A stretch of 64,000 nucleotides of DNA from Falsiroseomonas frigidaquae (GTDB taxonomy: Bacteria > Pseudomonadota > Alphaproteobacteria > Acetobacterales > Acetobacteraceae). The stretch's first letter is position 1, and each line of letters starts with the position of its first letter. The position numbers and the translations under genes are program-made. The stretch spans positions 310,001 to 374,000 of the forward strand of contig NZ_JAAVTX010000003.1 of assembly GCF_012163145.1 (NCBI RefSeq). Reading direction: 5' to 3'. Below are positions 55,280-64,000 of this stretch, one piece after another. The notes under the pieces are model-generated. The model made no database searches. It saw nothing but the letters and a program-made list of their open reading frames with translations, and was not told where the DNA came from.

Positions 55280-55558
55280 ATGAATGATCGCCATGTCCAC
55301 GGCTCCCACCCGGAGATCGCCAAGCGCCTGAAGCGGGCCGAGGGTCATCTACGCAGCGTGGTAGAGATGATCGAGGCGGGCCGGGCATGCCTGGACATTG
55401 CGCAGCAGCTCCACGCCGTCGAAGCGGCGATTGCGAACGCCAAGCGCACCCTCATCCATGACCATCTCGACCATTGCTTGGACCATATGGTCGGCGCGAT
55501 CCCGCGCGCCAATCGCGGGCCCATCGATGATCTCAAGGCGCTCACCAAGTATCTCTGA
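55280..55558 (+). CDS. CsoR/RcnR-family metal-sensing repressor
   Basis: The 92-residue all-helical regulator has the DUF156 pattern KRLKRAEGHLRSVVEMIEAGRACLDIAQQL. Cys37, His62 and Cys66 reproduce the Cys-His-Cys metal triad of copper-sensing CsoR (36/61/65). The N-terminus MNDRHVHGSH adds histidines reminiscent of nickel/cobalt sensors. Metal binding would release it from DNA. The metal cannot be decided: the HupE/UreJ-like neighbour hints at nickel or cobalt, the nearby operon at copper. Confidence 0.87.
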   Translation: MNDRHVHGSHPEIAKRLKRAEGHLRSVVEMIEAGRACLDIAQQLHAVEAAIANAKRTLIHDHLDHCLDHMVGAIPRANRGPIDDLKALTKYL

Positions 55559-56376: not shown

Positions 56377-56985
56377 TCGTGACCCCGTTGCTGAAGGCGA
56401 CTTGGCGGTGGGAGTCGTCAAGTCAAGCGAGAGGCTCAGTGTGCCCTCCCTCGTCGTCAATTCTGACCCACCAGCAGCCGCAGTTTCTCCAACGCGACCC
56501 GCTCGCTCTCCTTGTAGTCGACCGTCCCGGCGAAGCGCCCCTCGGCATCCAGCAGGAAGATGCTCGCCGAGTGGTCCATCGTGTAGCCACCGCCCTCCAG
56601 CGGAACGCGCTGGTAATAGACGCGAAAGCTTCGCGCAGCCTCCGCAATCTGCGGCTCGGTGCCAGACAGGCCCGTGATCCGCCGATCGAAGGCTTCGAGG
56701 TAGTTGGCCATCGCCTGCGGTGTGTCGCGCTCGCTGTCCACACTCACGAACAGCCACTGGATCCGATCCGCATCCGCACCCATGGCCTCGATGAAGCTCG
56801 TCATCTCATTGAGGGTGGTCGGGCAGACATCGGGACACGACGTGAAGCCGAAGAAGATCGCCACAGGCCGTCCGCGGAAATCCTGCTCGGTCACGGGCCG
56901 GCCGCGGTGGTCAGTCAGTCGGAATGGCCCGCCGATCGCAAGGCTCTGAACCGCGCCGGGTTTGCCGGAGGCTGTTTGGTGTGAG

Positions 56986-57891
56986 TCAGGCCGCCAGGGG
57001 TGTGGCTTCCTGGGCGGCATAGTAGCGCGCCTCCGCTTCGGCGGGCGGGATGTTGCCGATCGGCTCGAGGAGGCGGCGGTTGTTGAACCAGTCCACCCAT
57101 TCGAGAGTGGCGAACTCGACGACCTCGAGGCTACGCCACGGCCCGCGGCGCCGGATGACCTCGGTCTTGAACAGGCCGATGACGCTCTCGGCCAGCGCGT
57201 TGTCGTAGCTGTCGCCGACGCTGCCGACCGACGGCTCGATCCCGGCCTCGGCCAGGCGCTCGGTGTAGCGGATCGACACGTATTGCACGCCGCGGTCGCT
57301 GTGATGGACCAGCCCCGTGCCCTGGACAGGCCGCCGGTCGTGCAGCGCCTGCTCAAGAGCATCGAGGACAAACCCCGCATGGGCCGTCCGCGACACCCGC
57401 CAGCCGACGATCCTTCGGGCGAAGGTGTCGATGACGAAGGCGACGTAGACAAAGCCCTGCCAGGTCGCGACGTAGGTGAAGTCGGACACCCAGAGCAGGT
57501 TCGGACGCGGCGCGAGGAACTGCCGGTTCACCCGGTCGGCCGGGCACGGGGCGCCCCTGTCCGGCACTGTCGTCCTTGTCTCCTTCCCGCGCACCACGCC
57601 GCGCAAGCCCAACTGCCGCATCAGACGTGCCACGGTGCAGCGGGCGACCGGCGTCCCCTCGCGACCGAGTTGGCGCCAGACCTTCCGCACGCCGTAGACG
57701 CCGAAGTTCTCGGCGTGGACGCGCCGCACCTCCGCCCGCAGCATCCCGTCTCGCTGCGACCTGGTCGAGCCTTGGGTGGGATCGGCGCGCTGCGCAACGC
57801 GGGCGTGGTAGGTGGACGGGGCGATCGGCAGGACACGGCAGATCGGCTCGACCCCATACTCACCCCGATGATCGTCGATGAACGCGATCAT
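56986..57891 (-). CDS. IS3-family transposase OrfB (DDE integrase domain)
   Basis: The 301-residue protein has the rve-type catalytic core: first Asp in [13 protein letters not shown], second in [12 protein letters not shown] and Glu in [18 protein letters not shown] helix-turn-helix segment lies at the N-terminus ([21 protein letters not shown]). Its ATG overlaps the orfA stop (ATGA), so it may be made by reinitiation or as an OrfAB fusion by frameshift. Confidence 0.95.
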
Positions 57892-58220
57892 GGCTTCGAC
57901 CGGCGGTCGAGCTCCGCCAGGGCAAAATACGCCGACGCCTTGCGCAGGATCTCATTGGCCTGGCGCAGCTCGCGGACCTCCCGCTCCAGCGCCTTGATCC
58001 GATCCCGCTCCTCGCTCGTGGGGCCCGCTCGCTTGCCGCGATCGCGCTCTGCCTGCCGCACCCAGCGCCGCAGCGTCTCCGCCGTGCAGCCGATCTTCGC
58101 CGCGATCGAACCGATCGCCGCCCACTGCGAGCCGTGCTCCCCGGCGCCGTCCAGCACAAGCCGCACCGCCCGCTCCCGAACCTCAGGCGAGTAGTTCGCC
58201 GCCGTCTTCCTTGCCGTCAT
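57888..58220 (-). CDS. IS3-family transposase OrfA (HTH, leucine zipper)
   Basis: The 110-residue protein has an IS3/IS911-type helix-turn-helix ([15 protein letters not shown] ... [20 protein letters not shown]) and a C-terminal coiled coil ([26 protein letters not shown]). It binds the IS ends and, joined to OrfB, forms the transposase. Confidence 0.93.
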
Positions 58221-58419
58221 CGCTCCATCCTCTCAACGGTTGGAGCCTCCGGCAAACCCGGCGCGGTTCACTCGACGGGCCGGTTGCGACACGTTCGGGA
58301 GCCAAGGGCCCATCGGTCACCAGCCAGCCGCCGGTGGTCGCCAGGAGAGCGAAACCCACGACAGCGACGGCACCCCAGGCGAGCCAACGCATCAGGCGCA
58401 AGAGCTTCATCGCACGGCC

Positions 58420-58914
58420 TCAATGCCCGTCGTGGCCGGAGCCGCGCGCGCCGGCTGCTTCGACCGCAAGTTCGACTTCGACGCGCCCGGCCCGCTCGAA
58501 CACCAGCGTGAGTGGGATGCGCGCACCCTGGGTGAAGCCGCCCTGCGGGCCGACCAGCATCAGGTGCTGGCTGCCAGGTGCGAGGCGGACCTCTTGCCCG
58601 GGCGGAATGGCGATCCCGCCAGGGATTGGGCGCATGCGCATGATGCCGTCAGTCAAGGTCATCTCGTGCTGCTCGACCTTGTTCACCCGCGACATCTCGG
58701 CTCCAACAAGCCGATCGGCGACGCTGCCGGTGTTGCGGATGGTCATGTAACCCGCCGCGGTCGGGGCGCTGGCCGTGACCGCGCGCGTCCAGGGATGGCC
58801 GATCTGCAGGTCGCCGGCGCGGAAATCATGCGCGGTGGCAGACCCGGATGGCAGAGCAGAGGCAGTGAGGGTCGCGCCGGCCATGAGGGCCGCGCGCAGG
58901 AAAGTGCGACGCAT
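58420..58914 (-). CDS. Periplasmic copper chaperone PCu(A)C
   Basis: The 164-residue protein has a signal peptide (FLRAALMAGATLTASALPSGSATA) and the PCu(A)C fold. The copper ligands follow the H-x-n-M ... H-x-M pattern: NKVEQHEMTLTDGIMRMRP and GSQHLMLVG. It hands copper(I) to the CuA site of cytochrome oxidase, often with SCO1, which lies 9 bases downstream. A His-rich tail (GSGHDGH) ends the protein. ATG 58914 is preferred over 59022. Confidence 0.9.
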   Translation of the reverse strand: MRRTFLRAALMAGATLTASALPSGSATAHDFRAGDLQIGHPWTRAVTASAPTAAGYMTIRNTGSVADRLVGAEMSRVNKVEQHEMTLTDGIMRMRPIPGGIAIPPGQEVRLAPGSQHLMLVGPQGGFTQGARIPLTLVFERAGRVEVELAVEAAGARGSGHDGH

Positions 58915-58972
58915 GAAGGAGAACTCCGAATCGGAATGGAAAGCAGCCGGCGCACGACGCCGGCGATGACGA

Positions 58973-59365
58973 TCAGCCGATATTCGGAGGTGTGGGCGGT
59001 GCACGCGCTGGCGGCGGGCCACGCGCTGGCGGCGAGAAAACGAGCCGACGGCCAGGCGGACGAGCCTGTTCGAGGTTCACCCAAGCGGGCTGATGCAGAA
59101 CGACGTCGGCCGGCGGCAGCGCCCAGGCACCATCCGGCAGACGGCACAGTGGGCAATGCCCGGCCGGCGCCGCATGCGGAGCCTGTTCTTCCTCCGCGGG
59201 TCCGGGTTGTCCGGAGGGCAGGCAGAGCGATGAACGCAGCAGCGCGTCGAAGGCCGAACGCTCCACCGTCGCGAAGGCCGGCAGCGGCAGCAACAGGCGC
59301 GCGATGATCCCGAGCAGCACCAGCGCCGAGACAGGCGCGCGCAGTTCTGCCCAGATGCGCCTCAT
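58973..59365 (-). CDS. DUF2946 protein
   Basis: The 130-residue protein has an N-terminal membrane segment (APVSALVLLGIIARLLLPLPAFA) and the DUF2946 motif GHCPLCRLPDG with two cysteines, followed by a Pro-rich tail. DUF2946 genes commonly accompany copper-handling or TonB receptor genes. Here it sits between ynfA (4-base overlap) and PCu(A)C. Copper binding by the CxxC pair is plausible but unproven. Confidence 0.8.
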   Translation of the reverse strand: MRRIWAELRAPVSALVLLGIIARLLLPLPAFATVERSAFDALLRSSLCLPSGQPGPAEEEQAPHAAPAGHCPLCRLPDGAWALPPADVVLHQPAWVNLEQARPPGRRLVFSPPARGPPPARAPPTPPNIG

Positions 59366-59688
59366 GCTTGGCGCGGTCCGTAGAGGATGATCAGCGCGCC
59401 AATGACGGAGACGGCGCCACCGATCAGGTCCCAGCGATCGGGCGAAACGCCCTCCACCGCCCGCAGCCAGACCAGCGAAGCCGCGATGTAGATGCCGCCA
59501 TAGACCGCGAAGGCCCGGCCGGCGCTCTCCACATCCGTCAGCGACAGCAGCCAGCCGAACAGGGCAAGCGATACGACGCCAGCAGCAGCCCAGCCAATAG
59601 ACCCGCCGAGCCGCCACCTGGTCCAGATCGCATAACAGCCGGCGATCTCGGCCGCGGCAGCCGCGAGGTAGATCGCGAGAGATTTCAT
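59362..59688 (-). CDS. YnfA family (UPF0060) membrane protein
   Basis: The 108-residue protein has four hydrophobic segments and the family phrases EIAGCYAIWTRWRLGGS and GRAFAVYGGIYIAASLVWLRAVEG. YnfA proteins are SMR-like small transporters of uncertain substrate. ATG 59688 overlaps the M23 peptidase stop, and its own stop overlaps the DUF2946 start. Confidence 0.92.
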   Translation of the reverse strand: MKSLAIYLAAAAAEIAGCYAIWTRWRLGGSIGWAAAGVVSLALFGWLLSLTDVESAGRAFAVYGGIYIAASLVWLRAVEGVSPDRWDLIGGAVSVIGALIILYGPRQA

Positions 59689-60176
59689 TGCGCTGTCGGA
59701 GCTTCCGCGACCTCGGTCAAAGGCACGCATGCGGTTCGCGTCAGCCAGGGCCAGGGGTTCTCGGGCCTGCCCCCGCGGCGGAGTTCGACATGCAGGTTGG
59801 CCCCGGTGGTGCGTCCGGTGCGTCCAACGACGCCGATCTCCACTGCCGCGTTCACAAGCGTTCCAGCGCGGATGCCTGGCGCGAAGCGGGCAAGATGGGC
59901 GTAACGCGCGCGTGAGCCGTCCGGATGTTCAATCTCGACCATCAGGCCGTAGTCGAAGTAGCGCCCGGCGAAAAGCACAACCCCTCGCCCGGCCGCGATC
60001 ACCGTCGTGCCTTCCGGGGCCCGCAAGTCGATCCCCGAATGCATCCGGCCATGGCGGGGCCCGAAGCCCGAGGAAAGCTCCCCAGCCACGGGCATGGCTG
60101 CCGGACACGGGGCCGCCATGCCAGTGGCTGGGACGAATGCAAGGGTTATACCCAGGATTATGCAACGCAGTCCCAT
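59685..60176 (-). CDS. M23 (LytM) family periplasmic peptidase
   Basis: From ATG 60176 the product is 163 residues with a signal peptide ending near GMAA. The LytM zinc-site residues are present: His46 and Asp50 in MHSGIDLR, YAHLARF and the final His in NLHVELR. Such enzymes cut peptidoglycan cross-links or serve as regulators. It is short, with no coiled coil or LysM part. In this operon a role in assembling envelope proteins is inferred. Confidence 0.87.
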   Translation of the reverse strand: MGLRCIILGITLAFVPATGMAAPCPAAMPVAGELSSGFGPRHGRMHSGIDLRAPEGTTVIAAGRGVVLFAGRYFDYGLMVEIEHPDGSRARYAHLARFAPGIRAGTLVNAAVEIGVVGRTGRTTGANLHVELRRGGRPENPWPWLTRTACVPLTEVAEAPTAQ

Positions 60177-60226
60177 AGTGCGACAGGATGTGCCGCAGGG
60201 TAGCCATACGCGCAACCCTGCGCGCC

Positions 60227-60922
60227 TCATAGGCGCGGAAGCACTCTGGGAGCCGGAGCAGGGACCGCCCCTGGCGGCAGAAGCGGTTGCACCAGCTGCG
60301 CGAAACGTTCGAAGGTCAGCACACCGCGCTGTACCTGGCCGCCGATGACGAAGGAAGGCGTTGCGCTGATGCTGAACTCCCGTTCGGCTTGCAGCCGGGA
60401 TGCGATGATGGGGTCGGAGAAGCCGCGGTCGGTCCAACAGGCTTCCAGGCGAGCGGGAGAAAGACCCGCCAAACCAGCCGTACGGCGCAGCCAGCCGCGA
60501 GCATCTGGGCTGTGCGCCCAAGCCTCCTTGTTGGTGTAGAGCACGGAGAGCAGGGCCTCGAACCGCTCCGGCCCCGCGCAGTGGACAAGCGCGGCGGCAT
60601 CGACCGCCACGCGGTCGAGCGGGAAGTCCCTCAGCACGAAGCGCACCAGCCCAGGATCCACATAGGCAGCCTTGATGCGGGGAAAATGCTGGGTGTGAAA
60701 ATTGGCGCAGTTGCCGCAGGTCAGCGAGTGGAACTCGATCACCGTCACAGGAGCGTCCTCCCGCCCGATCGCGCGCTCGCTAGGCAGTGGGCGCGGGGTC
60801 TCCGGGCCAGGCTCGGTGACCGCGAAGGGTGGGGCTGCCGCTTGCTGTCCCAAGGCAGGGGCGGACAGGACCAGGACGCCCAGGCCGGTCAGGGTGCCGC
60901 GGCGCGAAAGATCTTTGCTCAT
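60227..60922 (-). CDS. DsbA-family thiol-disulfide oxidoreductase
   Basis: The 231-residue protein has an export signal (SRRGTLTGLGVLVLSAPALG), the active site CGNC at 69-72 in EFHSLTCGNCANFH, and the cis-Pro loop SATPSFVIGG. It resembles DsbA/Com1-type periplasmic oxidoreductases. It overlaps lspA by 4 bases and lies in one operon with ccdA, which can reduce such periplasmic thiol proteins. Confidence 0.9.
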   Translation of the reverse strand: MSKDLSRRGTLTGLGVLVLSAPALGQQAAAPPFAVTEPGPETPRPLPSERAIGREDAPVTVIEFHSLTCGNCANFHTQHFPRIKAAYVDPGLVRFVLRDFPLDRVAVDAAALVHCAGPERFEALLSVLYTNKEAWAHSPDARGWLRRTAGLAGLSPARLEACWTDRGFSDPIIASRLQAEREFSISATPSFVIGGQVQRGVLTFERFAQLVQPLLPPGAVPAPAPRVLPRL

Positions 60923-61425
60923 TGGATTTTGCTCCCAGTATTTTGAAAGGCGGTGGTGTTCTCGGCCGATGCGGGACGCAGGCCGGCAAGGATGAGCAGG
61001 GCGACACCGCAGACGATTGCAACATCGGCCATGTTGAAGGTGGGCCAGTGCCAGCCCGCGTAATGCGCGTCGAGGAAGTCAACGACGGCCCCGATGCGCA
61101 GCCGGTCGACGGCATTGCCAAGGGCACCGCCGATGATGAGGCCGAGCGCCAGGGCCTCCACTCTTGATGTCCTGCGCCAGAGCCAGCGCAGCAGAACACC
61201 TGTGATGGCGAGGGTGACCAGCACCAGCACCCAGGCGGCGCCGGCTGCACTGTCGGCAAACATGCCGAAGGTCACGCCGGTGTTGAAGCCGAGCCGCAGG
61301 TTCAGCACGGGCAGCACCGTGATGCCCTCACTATAGGGTGGCCAAAGGGCGCCGAGCGCCCAGGCTTTGGTGGCCTGGTCCACCGCACCGGCGGCCAGCG
61401 CCGCCATGATCCCGATCAAGCGCAT
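60919..61425 (-). CDS. lspA: Lipoprotein signal peptidase II
   Basis: The 168-residue aspartic protease has four membrane helices and the LspA motifs GFNTGVTFGMF, GGALGNAVDRLRIGAVVDFLD and FNMADVAI. The catalytic aspartates are Asp107 and Asp134. It removes signal peptides from prolipoproteins in the inner membrane. Together with lnt in the same operon it makes a lipoprotein maturation pair. It overlaps ccdA by one base. Confidence 0.94.
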   Translation of the reverse strand: MRLIGIMAALAAGAVDQATKAWALGALWPPYSEGITVLPVLNLRLGFNTGVTFGMFADSAAGAAWVLVLVTLAITGVLLRWLWRRTSRVEALALGLIIGGALGNAVDRLRIGAVVDFLDAHYAGWHWPTFNMADVAIVCGVALLILAGLRPASAENTTAFQNTGSKIQ

Positions 61426-62147
61426 CAGCCAAGCCTCAGCAGGAAGGGAAAGGTCTGGACGAACCAGCCCGCGATGCTGGTCATCTCGCCCAGCATCATC
61501 AGCACGCCCATCGCCGCCATGACGAAGCCAGAGGCGACTTGCGCTCCGCGGCCGAAGCCACGCCATTGCCGCAACGTCGCCGCGGCCGCAGGCAGGTAGA
61601 AGGCGACCAGCAGGAAGGGCACGCCCAGCCCCAACGAGTAGGCCAGCAGCAGCGGTGCCCCTGCGCCATCACCCTGGATAGCCGCGACCGCCAGTACTGC
61701 ACCGAGGACAGGGCCAATGCAGGGCGTCCAGGCAAAACCGAAGGAGACGCCGAGCAGCGCCGCGCCGCCGGGCGTGCCGCCCGCTGCAAAGGCGGGCAGC
61801 CGCACGTCCCGTAGCAGCCAGGAGGGGCGCAGCGCACCGATCTGCACCAGGCCAAAGGCCAGGACCAGTGCCCCGCCGGCGACCTGGAACTCCAGGCTCC
61901 AGCGCCGCAGCCATTGCGACAACGCCGAGGCACCGAGCCCGAGCAGCACGAAGACCAGCGAAAAGCCTAGGACGAAGCTGGCACCCAGCAGCATGGCGCG
62001 GCTTCGTGGCGGCGCATCCCGCACGCCGGTGCCGCAGGCGTAGGCCACCCAGCCCGGAACCAGCGGCAGCACGCAGGGCGACAGAAAGGAGACCAGGCCG
62101 CCACCGAACGCCAGGAGCAGGCCGAGGGCCGAGAATTCAAGCGCCAT
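61425..62147 (-). CDS. ccdA: Cytochrome c biogenesis/thiol reductant transporter CcdA
   Basis: The 240-residue protein has six membrane segments and the paired redox cysteines of CcdA: Cys25 in SPCVLPLVPGW and Cys143 in WTPCIGPVLG. It moves reducing power from cytosolic thioredoxin to periplasmic thiols, for haem attachment or copper-site assembly. It overlaps lnt by 11 bases and lspA by one. Confidence 0.92.
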   Translation of the reverse strand: MALEFSALGLLLAFGGGLVSFLSPCVLPLVPGWVAYACGTGVRDAPPRSRAMLLGASFVLGFSLVFVLLGLGASALSQWLRRWSLEFQVAGGALVLAFGLVQIGALRPSWLLRDVRLPAFAAGGTPGGAALLGVSFGFAWTPCIGPVLGAVLAVAAIQGDGAGAPLLLAYSLGLGVPFLLVAFYLPAAAATLRQWRGFGRGAQVASGFVMAAMGVLMMLGEMTSIAGWFVQTFPFLLRLG

Positions 62148-63732
62148 GCGGCTCGCCTCCCCTGCGGGTCGCGGCTAAGCCTGCCAGCCCTGTGAACAGG
62201 ACCGCCAGCAGCGGCCAGTCTCCGAAGCTTGCGTAGGGCGTTCGGCTCGGCAACGCTCCAGGCAGCGCCACGTCCAGTACGCCCCGCGTGCCAAGTGCCA
62301 ACTGCTGCCGCACCCGCCCGTAGGCATCGGTGACGAAGGAAACCCCGCCATTCGCAACGCGCACCATCGGTAATCCGAGTTCCACAGCGCGCATCCTGGC
62401 CGCAAGCGCATGCTGGTGCGGCCCCCAGGAGCGACCGAACCAGGCGTCGTTGGTGAGGGTCAGAATCCAACCTGCGTCGCGTGCTGTTCCACCGCCACCA
62501 CCAGGAAAGATTGCCTCGTAGCAGATCAGCGTCATGGCGGCAGGCAAGCCGGGAACCGGCAATGGCGCCGGGTCCGTGCCCGGCGAGAAATCTACTGCGC
62601 CATCCGTCAGCTTCGGCACCCCCGGTAGCCACGCGCGGAAGGGCACGTATTCGCCGAAGGGGACCAGCCGCATCTTGTCGTAGGCCGACAGGATTCGGGC
62701 CGTGCCATCGAGGACCAACACGCTGTTCCGCATCGACGGCTGCCCGGCGACGTCCAGCCCGCGTCGTACCCCGCCAGTCACGAGGGCGCCCCGCGGCGGC
62801 ACCACAGCGGCGATTGCCGCGCGGACGGCAGGCTCCTCTGCGATCAGGTAGGGAACTGCCGTCTCGGGCCAAAGCAGATGCGTCGGTTCTGCGCCCAATG
62901 CTCCCGGTGTGCGGCTGAGAGAGAGAAGATCGGCGAGGATGCGAGCCCTTTCCGAGGGCGCCCATTTGAGGGACTGCGCCACGTCGGGCTGCACCAGGCG
63001 CAGCCGAACATCCGGCAATTCCGGTGGCGGCGGCACCGCGAGCCTTGCCGCGCCGCCGGCCCACAGCAGCGCCACGCAGCAGGCGGCGAGGCCGAACGGC
63101 AAGACCCGCCGAGCGGAAAGCGCGAAAGCCGGCAGCGCCGCGAGGAGGATGGTCGCCAGACCAAGGCCATGAATTCCAATGAAGGCGGCAAGCTGAAGGG
63201 GCGCGTCGGCGAACCCCCAGACGTGCCCTGCGAGATTCCATGGAAAGCCGGTCAGGACCGTCCCGCGCAGCCATTCACCCGCCGCCCAGCAGATCGTGAA
63301 TGCGATGAGAAGACGCGGACCGCGCCCGGAACCCGCCACGTATCGCGCAGCCGCGAGCGATAAGGCGGGAAACGAGGCCAGACCCGCCGACAACGCCACG
63401 AGCGCCGGAACGGCGAGCGCACCGAAGGTCTCGGCATCCACGGCGAATGCCTCGGTGATCCAGCCAAGCCCGACTATGAAGTTGCCGATGCCGAACAGCC
63501 ATCCAAGAAGGAAGGCGCCTTGGACCGAGCGCGTCCGCTCCAGCAGCAGAAACAACCCGCCGAAGCCGAGAAGGAAGGCCGGCAGAAGGTACAGCGGCGC
63601 GAAAGCGAGCGGCGTCATAGCCCCGAGAGCAAGTGCGGCCGCATTCGACTGCAGCCCAAGCCGGAGCGGCGTCAATGTCGGATTGCCCACCGATGCGGTG
63701 CCTGCTTCCGCAGCCAGCGGGCCGGCCTTCAT
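62137..63732 (-). CDS. lnt: Apolipoprotein N-acyltransferase
   Basis: The 531-residue protein has about seven hydrophobic segments in its first 235 residues and a C-terminal nitrilase domain. The catalytic residues fit Glu290 in LLWPETAVP, Lys353 in YDKMRLVPFGEYVPF and Cys404 in LICYEAIFP. It adds the third acyl chain to lipoproteins in the inner membrane. Lnt is normally a housekeeping gene elsewhere, so this copper-operon copy is likely accessory. Confidence 0.93.
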   Translation of the reverse strand: MKAGPLAAEAGTASVGNPTLTPLRLGLQSNAAALALGAMTPLAFAPLYLLPAFLLGFGGLFLLLERTRSVQGAFLLGWLFGIGNFIVGLGWITEAFAVDAETFGALAVPALVALSAGLASFPALSLAAARYVAGSGRGPRLLIAFTICWAAGEWLRGTVLTGFPWNLAGHVWGFADAPLQLAAFIGIHGLGLATILLAALPAFALSARRVLPFGLAACCVALLWAGGAARLAVPPPPELPDVRLRLVQPDVAQSLKWAPSERARILADLLSLSRTPGALGAEPTHLLWPETAVPYLIAEEPAVRAAIAAVVPPRGALVTGGVRRGLDVAGQPSMRNSVLVLDGTARILSAYDKMRLVPFGEYVPFRAWLPGVPKLTDGAVDFSPGTDPAPLPVPGLPAAMTLICYEAIFPGGGGGTARDAGWILTLTNDAWFGRSWGPHQHALAARMRAVELGLPMVRVANGGVSFVTDAYGRVRQQLALGTRGVLDVALPGALPSRTPYASFGDWPLLAVLFTGLAGLAATRRGGEPHGA

Positions 63733-63887
63733 CTTTGCTCCGTCGCACGCGCCCTCCGCGCCTCCGCCTGTTCGTCCATTCGCGCTATGGTGATGGCGAA
63801 GAACACGGCTACGAGGGTGAAGAGTACGGCAAGGATGGCGCGCGACCGGCGCTGTTGGGCACGGATGCGGACGGCATCGGGCGACAT
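63729..63887 (-). CDS. Small single-helix protein, CoxF-like
   Basis: The 52-residue product has a basic N-terminus with RAQQRRSR, one membrane helix (AILAVLFTLVAVFFAITIARM) and a charged tail. This resembles the small CoxF-type proteins encoded in cytochrome oxidase operons, a match from pattern memory. Its stop overlaps the lnt ATG by 4 bases (ATGA), strong support that it is translated. Confidence 0.65.
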   Translation of the reverse strand: MSPDAVRIRAQQRRSRAILAVLFTLVAVFFAITIARMDEQAEARRARATEQR

Positions 63888-63895
63888 GTCATCGT

Positions 63896-64000
63896 TCAAT
63901 GGTCATGACCTCGGAGTTCAACAGGTACGTCGCCGGCCTGCGCAAACCGAAGGAACACCCGGATCATGTTGCCCGACCCAAGAGGCTGACGCAGTCCATT
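63896..64000 (-). CDS. Second PCu(A)C-type copper chaperone, C-terminal end (cut by window edge)
   Basis: The last 34 codons before the stop at 63896 read GLRQPLGSGNMIRVFLRFAQ and end in a His-containing VELRGHDH. This matches the closing strand and tail of PCu(A)C proteins (compare TLVFERAGRVEVEL in the copy at 58420). The copper ligands lie beyond the window. It is 8 bases upstream of the CoxF-like gene, so it belongs to the same operon. Confidence 0.7.
   Translation of the reverse strand, partial: NGLRQPLGSGNMIRVFLRFAQAGDVPVELRGHDH

What the first reader, a model, noticed from the sequence alone, without database searches (positions are those of the whole stretch)
56457..64000. Copper, disulfide and lipoprotein-maturation genes fused in one tight operon
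PCu(A)C, a CoxF-like protein, lnt, ccdA, lspA, a DsbA-like protein, an M23 peptidase, ynfA, DUF2946, PCu(A)C and SCO1 are on one strand, with most junctions overlapping by 1-11 bases. Lnt and LspA are normally housekeeping genes elsewhere. Together with two copper chaperones they suggest a dedicated pathway for an acylated or copper-loaded envelope protein, perhaps for a cytochrome oxidase or copper response. I do not know a described system with this set.
Basis: partly seen in the sequence, partly recalled or inferred. Interest (0 to 1): 0.75.

Follow-up and report, generated by a model that had tools for sequence, protein, structure and literature searches.

The report
Metal-resistance island carrying spare lipoprotein-processing enzymes
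A metal-resistance gene cluster in this bacterium carries extra copies of two enzymes that finish the cell's lipid-anchored envelope proteins, and the same pairing turns up on plasmids and islands of other Gram-negative bacteria, which suggests that keeping lipoproteins properly finished is part of surviving toxic metals.

Summary
Eleven same-strand genes sit at the window's end; most junctions overlap by 1-11 bases. One correction: SCO1 is split by a 1,324-bp IS3-type element. Of the 80 best lnt loci kept from a genome scan, 24 lie in metal islands by my gene-family test and 56 do not. Of 19 plasmid contexts I chose, 15 are metal islands. All 24 island genomes have at least two lnt and two lspA. 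Upstream lie a Zn/Cd-type P-ATPase, CDF pump, mntH, mntR and a MerR gene, with a MerR-type operator before the ATPase; the nearest COX1 gene is about 149 kb away. Gammaproteobacterial plasmids carry a minimal cadR / CDF-lspA-lnt version with a different Lnt lineage. Best reading: a metal-switched island whose LspA/Lnt keep lipoprotein maturation running under metal load, a Gram-negative counterpart of the copper-linked lit2/lgt2 elements. Function is inferred, not shown.

The parts
63896..64000 (-). 3' part of first PCu(A)C copper chaperone gene (continues beyond the window in L013, ORF 896-1555)
   Evidence: ORF; tblastn family match
   Evidence: a similar ORF is in the C1 copy L015
62137..63732 (-). 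lnt, apolipoprotein N-acyltransferase (accessory copy); WPE, K and C motif residues kept
61425..62147 (-). ccdA, DsbD transmembrane-domain family
60919..61425 (-). lspA, signal peptidase II (accessory copy); start ATG at 61425
60227..60922 (-). DsbA-like thioredoxin-fold protein; twin-arginine-like signal by eye
   Evidence: 88% identical copy on contig C1
59685..60230 (-). M23 peptidase
59362..59688 (-). ynfA/UPF0060 membrane protein
58973..59365 (-). DUF2946-like ORF (below the family cut-off)
   Evidence: 21.1 bits, cut-off 23.7
58420..58914 (-). second PCu(A)C copper chaperone
58271..58410 (-). SCO1, N-terminal part (interrupted gene)
56947..58270 (-). IS3-type insertion element inside SCO1 (two transposase ORFs, inverted ends, 3-bp target duplication)
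56457..56946 (-). SCO1, C-terminal part

Best explanation
This is the envelope half of a horizontally acquired, metal-switched resistance island. A MerR-family regulator with the cysteine pattern of divalent-metal sensors (pattern recalled) activates a promoter just before a ZntA-like Zn/Cd P-type ATPase. The transcript probably reads through CDF, zf-TFIIB and PCu(A)C into lnt-ccdA-lspA-dsbA and on. While the pumps remove the ion from the cytoplasm, the extra LspA and Lnt keep lipoproteins cleaved and N-acylated in the metal-loaded envelope, so that they can still be released to the outer membrane. They may also cap the free alpha-amine that, beside the lipidated cysteine sulphur, can bind copper. 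DsbA/CcdA, SCO and PCu(A)C handle thiols and copper. It works like a Gram-negative counterpart of the copper-linked lit2/lgt2 elements of Listeria and Enterococcus. Shown here: extra copies, recurrence, presence on plasmids and patchy distribution, at least two Lnt lineages recruited, catalytic motifs kept, metal-gene linkage, an operator-like site. Inferred: expression, activity, and benefit under metal.
For: Extra copies: 3 lnt, 5 lspA and 2 full-length lgt in this genome; at least 2 lnt and 2 lspA over cut-off in 24 of 24 island genomes; at least 2 strong lgt in 11 of 24, in 6 of 24 on the same contig as an island-type lnt. Linkage: of the 80 kept genome loci, 21 of 22 with lspA within 6.5 kb of lnt have at least two metal families against 2 of 58 without; in the 56 non-island loci 18 of the 19 neighbour families gave no hit and the P-ATPase one. 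A second cassette lies on a 112-kb contig rich in metal genes. Separate lineage: 31 island Lnts plus L066 (cupredoxin over the Pfam cut-off about 1.6 kb away) fall apart from 56 others; 2 label changes against 25.6 in shuffles. Convergence: gammaproteobacterial island Lnts group with gammaproteobacterial housekeeping Lnts, at least 2 origins forced, and sit in cadR / CDF-lspA-lnt or cadR / CDF-ZIP-lnt-lspA. Operator: dyad with 19-bp spacer 27 nt before zntA, also in L027, with like sites before the ATPase in L143 and L144 and CadR-type sites before CDF in L146 and L153. Literature passages: copper impairs lipoprotein acylation in E. coli (PMC6538781); lit2/lgt2 on copper elements (PMC8275575, PMC8689077); Lnt-depleted E. 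coli accumulates copper (cutE work cited in PMC7387801); an lspA is induced more than 3-fold by Zn in two Mesorhizobium strains (PMC3668242).
Against: No expression, activity or phenotype was measured. The Mesorhizobium lspA was not significantly induced by Cd, and I did not check whether an lnt lies beside it. The commentary on the E. coli work places the copper block at the Lgt step on the substrate cysteine (PMC6593411), which extra LspA/Lnt would not relieve; the window cassette has no lgt. Copper stopped the Lit reaction in vitro, apparently by binding the diacyl substrate (PMC8275575), so N-acylation may not proceed on metal-bound substrate. The window's MerR scores highest against CueR but below every cut-off, so its metal is unsure. 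The operator's hexamers match the consensus poorly (7 of 12) and no such site was returned before zntA of the C1 copy. mntH/mntR suggest a manganese side that the model does not explain. An island copy could be a passenger selected for the pumps. The 24 island loci are not independent (several are near-identical), the scan and the neighbour families both started from island sequences, and 13 of the 56 non-island loci hold under 12 kb against 2 of 24.
Confidence: 0.58

Rival explanations
1. Dedicated substrate pathway: the extra LspA/Lnt mature specific island-encoded lipoproteins, such as lipid-anchored L,D-transpeptidases and a small conserved lipoprotein, rather than the whole lipoproteome.
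For: In 23 island loci surveyed, one L,D-transpeptidase cluster has an arginine-pair-plus-lipobox N-terminus in 6 of 8 members; an 8-member small protein family passes my lipobox pattern in 4 of 8 but has an invariant cysteine at that column in 8 of 8 when aligned; a 4-member family passes in 3 of 4.
Against: The same rough scan found no lipobox ORF on contig C1 and only a conjugation protein in the window plus 18 kb. The Halomonas/Vibrio minimal cassette is CDF-lspA-lnt only.
Confidence: 0.2
2. Copper delivery to a cytochrome oxidase or another cuproprotein; lnt/lspA are incidental neighbours.
For: PCu(A)C and SCO are in 22 and 21 of 24 island loci, DsbA in 22; single islands carry a cytochrome oxidase assembly gene or a cox subunit 3 gene.
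Against: The nearest COX1 gene to this cassette is about 149 kb away; a multicopper oxidase, CopB and a sensor kinase lie beyond the metal genes instead. No copper chaperone is annotated in the CadR-type units that carry lspA-lnt.
Confidence: 0.1
3. LspA works like PbrC of the lead operon and helps to trap or precipitate the exported ion; Lnt is a hitchhiker.
For: The authors of PMC3668242 liken their Zn-induced lspA to PbrC. Contig C1 has an lspA / P-ATPase / undecaprenyl-diphosphatase set that resembles pbrABC (likeness recalled).
Against: LspA is in 22 of 24 island loci that were found through Lnt, and Lnt has been recruited from at least two lineages, which is more than a passenger should show. 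The scan started from Lnt, so islands with LspA alone were not sampled.
Confidence: 0.08

Closest known systems
Copper-resistance mobile element with lit2 and lgt2 (Listeria monocytogenes, Enterococcus; Armbruster 2019, not held; seen only through passages of PMC8275575, PMC8689077 and PMC7387801)
   Same: Mobile metal-resistance element carrying paralogues of lipoprotein-modifying enzymes; the end product is an N-acylated lipoprotein
   Different: Gram-positive; Lit moves a chain within the molecule, Lnt adds a third chain; here LspA and Lnt (in part Lgt), Zn/Cd-type pumps and regulators, plus Dsb, SCO and peptidoglycan genes
pbr lead operon with PbrC (LspA-like), Cupriavidus metallidurans (recalled; mentioned in a passage of PMC3668242)
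   Same: LspA homologue in a divalent-metal resistance operon
   Different: No Lnt there as far as I recall; different neighbours and proposed role
Zn-responsive genes of Mesorhizobium metallidurans STM 2683 and strain STM 4661 (PMC3668242, passages only)
   Same: Signal peptidase II and CcdA genes induced by Zn, with locus-tag numbers near that of a P1B-type ATPase gene that was also differentially expressed (its direction was not in the passages I saw)
   Different: The terms lipoprotein and N-acyltransferase do not occur in that text; the role was read as metal precipitation
E. coli lnt = cutE and nlpE = cutF copper-tolerance genes (via passages and reference entries of PMC7387801 and PMC6538781)
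   Same: Same enzyme family linked to copper tolerance
   Different: Chromosomal housekeeping gene, not on a mobile island

Membership tests
Apolipoprotein N-acyltransferase (Lnt) | Match to the curated Lnt model over its cut-off | tested here: met
   TIGR00546 278.5 bits against 132.9
Apolipoprotein N-acyltransferase (Lnt) | Glu-Lys-Cys catalytic residues (motifs recalled) | tested here: met
   Window copy has WPE, K before LVPFGE, and CYE; 38 of 40 island rows keep all three after a looser second look, L025 is shortened and L102 lacks WPE
Signal peptidase II (LspA) | Curated model over cut-off and the two aspartate motifs (motifs recalled) | tested here: met
   TIGR00077 110.9 bits against 73.95; GNxxDR and FNxAD in 36 of 37 LspA places examined
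Accessory lipoprotein enzymes on a mobile metal-resistance element (the lit2/lgt2 kind) | Extra copies beside another, housekeeping set | tested here: met
Accessory lipoprotein enzymes on a mobile metal-resistance element (the lit2/lgt2 kind) | Location on a mobile element | tested here: met
   Met for relatives: plasmids, some typed conjugative. For the window inferred only, from conjugation genes beside the cassette
Accessory lipoprotein enzymes on a mobile metal-resistance element (the lit2/lgt2 kind) | Carries lit | not tested
   No lit search was made
Accessory lipoprotein enzymes on a mobile metal-resistance element (the lit2/lgt2 kind) | Induced by metal | not testable with these tools
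   Only an operator-like site and published Zn induction of an lspA in Mesorhizobium
Zn/Cd P1B-type ATPase ZntA | Curated models | tested here: inconclusive
   Subfamily ATPase-IB2_Cd 518.3 bits over its 313.5 cut-off, ZntA-type equivalog models below theirs (809.5 of 1005, 729.5 of 1240); the copper subfamily is also just over (404.2 of 397)
CadR/ZntR/CueR regulators | Equivalog score over cut-off | tested here: not met
   CueR 104.9 of 147.4, CadR-PbrR 100.2 of 151.45
Cytochrome oxidase assembly operon | cox genes nearby | tested here: not met
   Four COX1 matches, nearest C13:522839-524170, about 149 kb from the window's end

The most novel reading that the evidence does not exclude
Mobile metal-resistance islands of Gram-negative bacteria carry a metal-inducible second lipoprotein maturation pathway (Lnt2-LspA2, in part with Lgt2), recruited independently in alpha- and gammaproteobacteria, because lipoprotein N-acylation is itself a main target of toxic Zn/Cd/Cu and its replacement is a resistance mechanism. 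This would explain why E. coli lnt was first found as the copper gene cutE.
Probability: 0.45. Interest if true: 0.78.

Novelty: new variant of a known kind. Interest (0 to 1): 0.63.

Why it matters
Metal resistance is usually described as pumping, chelating or oxidising the ion. Here part of a core envelope-assembly pathway appears to be duplicated on the resistance element itself, in two bacterial classes. If confirmed, it names lipoprotein maturation as a real in-cell target of metals, gives a testable reason for the old cutE link between Lnt and copper, and shows that Gram-negative and Gram-positive bacteria reached a similar solution. It also gives natural, mobile Lnt and LspA variants with which to study how these enzymes tolerate metal.

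Tried and rejected
Rejected: that lnt/lspA are the only copies; that the set is a one-off; that it is a cox operon; that the operon as read is intact (SCO1 is interrupted). Led nowhere: looking for cassette-encoded lipoprotein substrates in this genome; L,D-transpeptidase in this genome (one match, on another contig); the Acinetobacter metal-island paper (none of the six terms sought occurs); blastn of the Stutzerimonas lnt in E. coli genomes (no match); family-wide search at E 1e-115 (only this genome, 1 of 150; more distant island copies would be missed at that limit). The statement that I found no description in print rests on searches of an open-access library; lists were capped (20 of 170, 0, 1, 3, 20 of 58, 20 of 26, 15 of 4,709).
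Full report
Observation. With the starts I chose there is a gap of 8 bases between the first PCu(A)C and the CoxF-like ORF, then overlaps of 4, 11, 1, 4, 4, 4 and 4 bases, then gaps of 58 and 9. DUF2946 is below its cut-off, and the CoxF-like ORF reaches no Pfam cut-off. A 100% identical copy of the element lies at L013:14795-16118, that is 77795-79118 in window numbering.

Genome. The window is C13:310001-374000 of a 6.08-Mb genome. Its species was not established; the closest island copy is in Roseomonas oleicola (98% Lnt identity). It holds three Lnt over the curated cut-off (the window copy, C1:66850 and C13:715332) and five LspA. It has two full-length Lgt and a third, partial match just over its cut-off (28.7 bits, cut-off 24.9). 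The second lgt is on the 112-kb contig C1, which also holds a second cassette, a ccdA with a 3'-shortened lspA, and RND-type and other metal genes (gene names on C1 partly by eye).

Upstream. The same-strand run continues beyond 64000 with PCu(A)C, zf-TFIIB-like, CDF, ZntA-like ATPase, DUF411-like and NRAMP-like (mntH) genes, with mntR and a MerR gene divergent. Beyond these lie a cupredoxin, a multicopper oxidase, CopB and a sensor kinase. The four COX1 matches of the genome are elsewhere, the nearest about 149 kb from the window's end on the same contig. On the other side are a metal-sensitive repressor gene at 55280-55558 and TrbB-, TrbE- and VirB9-type conjugation genes.

Recurrence. Of these 80, 24 have at least three cassette families within 9 kb; of the other 56, 55 have no family hit and L099 has one ATPase hit. 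Two cautions: the family set was itself drawn from island loci, and 13 of the 56 hold under 12 kb of DNA against 2 of the 24. With lspA within 6.5 kb as the label, 21 of 22 have at least two metal families against 2 of 58 without (Fisher 5e-16, not corrected for relatedness). Counts in the 24 island loci within about 10.5 kb: DsbA 22, PCu(A)C 22, LspA 22, SCO 21, M23 20, DUF411 20, MerR 18, L,D-transpeptidase 18, DsbB 18, P-ATPase 16, CDF 14, transglutaminase-like 13, ZIP 13, MntR 12, CcdA 10, YnfA 8, NRAMP 4, DUF2946 2, zf-TFIIB 2. The last two show that the exact window set is narrower than the island theme.

Plasmids. Of 19 neighbourhoods that I chose from the hit lists (not at random), 15 have metal-resistance genes beside lnt, L023 being the weakest case; L022/L025, L148/L156 and L153/L154 are near-copies of each other. 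Four (Legionella, Paracoccus TOH, Thioclava, P. aeruginosa) are housekeeping or non-metal contexts. The searches behind them found 280 and 291 plasmid records with some Lnt match, so most were not read.

Copy number. In 24 of 24 island genomes there are at least two lnt over cut-off and at least two lspA. At least two strong lgt matches (86 bits or more; weaker partial ones not counted) are in 11 of 24. In 6 of 24 one is on the same contig as an island-type lnt, about 10.5-31 kb away; three of these six are near-copies of one island and a fourth looks like one from frame length and spacing, and in one genome the lgt match is in two pieces. In 150 genomes drawn from the window's family only this genome has an Lnt at E 1e-115 or better.

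Trees. With 88 rows, 31 island Lnts and L066 lie apart from 56 others (SH-aLRT 85, midpoint root); the label needs 2 changes against 25.6 in shuffles. L066 was counted as non-island, but on its 5.4-kb contig a cupredoxin over the Pfam cut-off lies about 1.6 kb from lnt. With 13 plasmid rows added and 8 rows dropped, mostly near-copies (93 rows), the gammaproteobacterial island Lnts group with gammaproteobacterial housekeeping Lnts (98), and the alphaproteobacterial island Lnts form two supported sets (99 each) that are no longer joined (forks of 89-91). The Microvirga row is unplaced, the label needs 6 changes against 28.8, and supported branches force at least two origins (L149, L151 and L147 have long branches). 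So islands have recruited lnt more than once.

Minimal unit. Halomonas pHAL1 and a Vibrio alginolyticus plasmid carry cadR and, divergently, CDF-lspA-lnt with 3-4 bases between genes and the same LspA and Lnt protein accessions. Stutzerimonas has cadR / CDF-ZIP-lnt-lspA among integrating-element genes, Pseudomonas kurunegalensis cadR / CDF-CcdA-DsbD-like-lnt-lspA. No copper chaperone is annotated in these stretches, so the lnt-lspA link is with divalent-metal efflux rather than with copper delivery as such.

Regulation. In front of zntA (L013 minus 4915, window numbering 67915) lies TTGAAC-19 bp-CATACC over the dyad ACCTCTAG-CCA-CTAGAGGT, 27 nt before the start codon. The same site is in L027, and related sites precede the ATPase in L143 and L144. 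The search gave 1 site in 7.7 kb of L013 against 0, 0, 0, 0, 2, 1, 0 and 1 in eight single-base shuffles. It also gave sites with no evident meaning in other loci and none before zntA of the C1 copy L015. A looser consensus search gave TTGACA-19 bp-TATAAT before mntH and CadR-type sites before CDF in L146 and L153. Eight of nine island MerR proteins aligned have a cysteine near position 79 that the ninth, annotated CueR, lacks, and all nine have two further cysteines; that the first marks divalent-metal sensors is recalled. The window MerR is below every equivalog cut-off.

Lipoproteins. In 23 island loci a rough pattern (not SignalP) finds lipobox N-termini in an L,D-transpeptidase cluster (6 of 8), a small conserved family (4 of 8; all 8 have the cysteine when aligned) and a third family (3 of 4), but none beside the cassette in this genome.

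Mechanism and literature. All papers were seen as abstracts or passages only. Copper impairs lipoprotein acylation in E. coli (PMC6538781). A commentary adds L,D-transpeptidases and disulfide formation as copper targets and puts the acylation block at the Lgt step (PMC6593411). Lipoprotein enzymes, L,D-transpeptidases and Dsb proteins are what many of these islands add, although the window cassette has no L,D-transpeptidase and no lgt. lit2 with lgt2 sits on Gram-positive copper elements, with the proposal that N-acylation removes a copper site; but copper stopped Lit in vitro, apparently by binding its substrate (PMC8275575), which counts against a simple form of the model. A Zn-induced lspA is known in two Mesorhizobium strains and was likened to PbrC; it was not significantly induced by Cd (PMC3668242). 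I found no paper describing lnt with lspA on metal islands in searches (capped lists; subscription journals mostly missing).

Verdict. The finding is real and recurrent. It is best filed as a new, Gram-negative variant of a known kind (accessory lipoprotein enzymes on mobile metal-resistance elements).

Noticed in passing
L024:13351-13797, L067:8568-8942, L082:8569-8925 and five other island loci: Small conserved likely lipoprotein family (..EDGCYWYxHxGPVETT..LPL..IC), no Pfam match for the one member scanned (L067), found in 8 of 23 island loci, in several beside an L,D-transpeptidase gene.
   Followed up: partly
G000:C1:29312-30178 (L110): Second full-length lgt on the metal contig, beside a TlpA-like gene and not far from RND-type metal genes.
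   Followed up: partly
L014:1435-7755: lspA next to a P-type ATPase with several HMA-like repeats, an undecaprenyl-diphosphatase and a further ORF that looks like a metallo-hydrolase; resembles a pbrABC-like lead set.
   Followed up: partly
L014:9488-10887: Third, partial cassette copy: ccdA plus an lspA whose 3' end runs into unrelated sequence.
   Followed up: no
window:43217-52303 (minus): TrbB-, TrbE- and VirB9-type conjugation genes next to the island, so it may sit in an integrated conjugative element.
   Followed up: partly
window:55280-55558 (+): Metal-sensitive transcriptional repressor (PF02583) between the conjugation genes and the cassette.
   Followed up: no
L013:14795-16118 (window numbering 77795-79118): Second, 100% identical copy of the IS3-type element that interrupts SCO1, past the CopB and sensor-kinase genes.
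   Followed up: yes
L154:16639-17323: Vibrio plasmid has a second CDF-lspA pair a few kb from the CDF-lspA-lnt unit; what follows the CDF gene was outside the stretch read.
   Followed up: no
window:52813-54969 (minus): PAP2/LssY-type membrane phosphatase next to the island; a phosphatase gene near lspA is also noted among the Zn-induced genes of Mesorhizobium STM 2683 (PMC3668242 passage).
   Followed up: no
G000:C13:366457-382000 region, L013:5684-8026: mntH with divergent mntR-merR and a consensus TTGACA-19-TATAAT promoter: a manganese-uptake side to the island that the model leaves unexplained; MntR is near 12 of 24 island loci.
   Followed up: no
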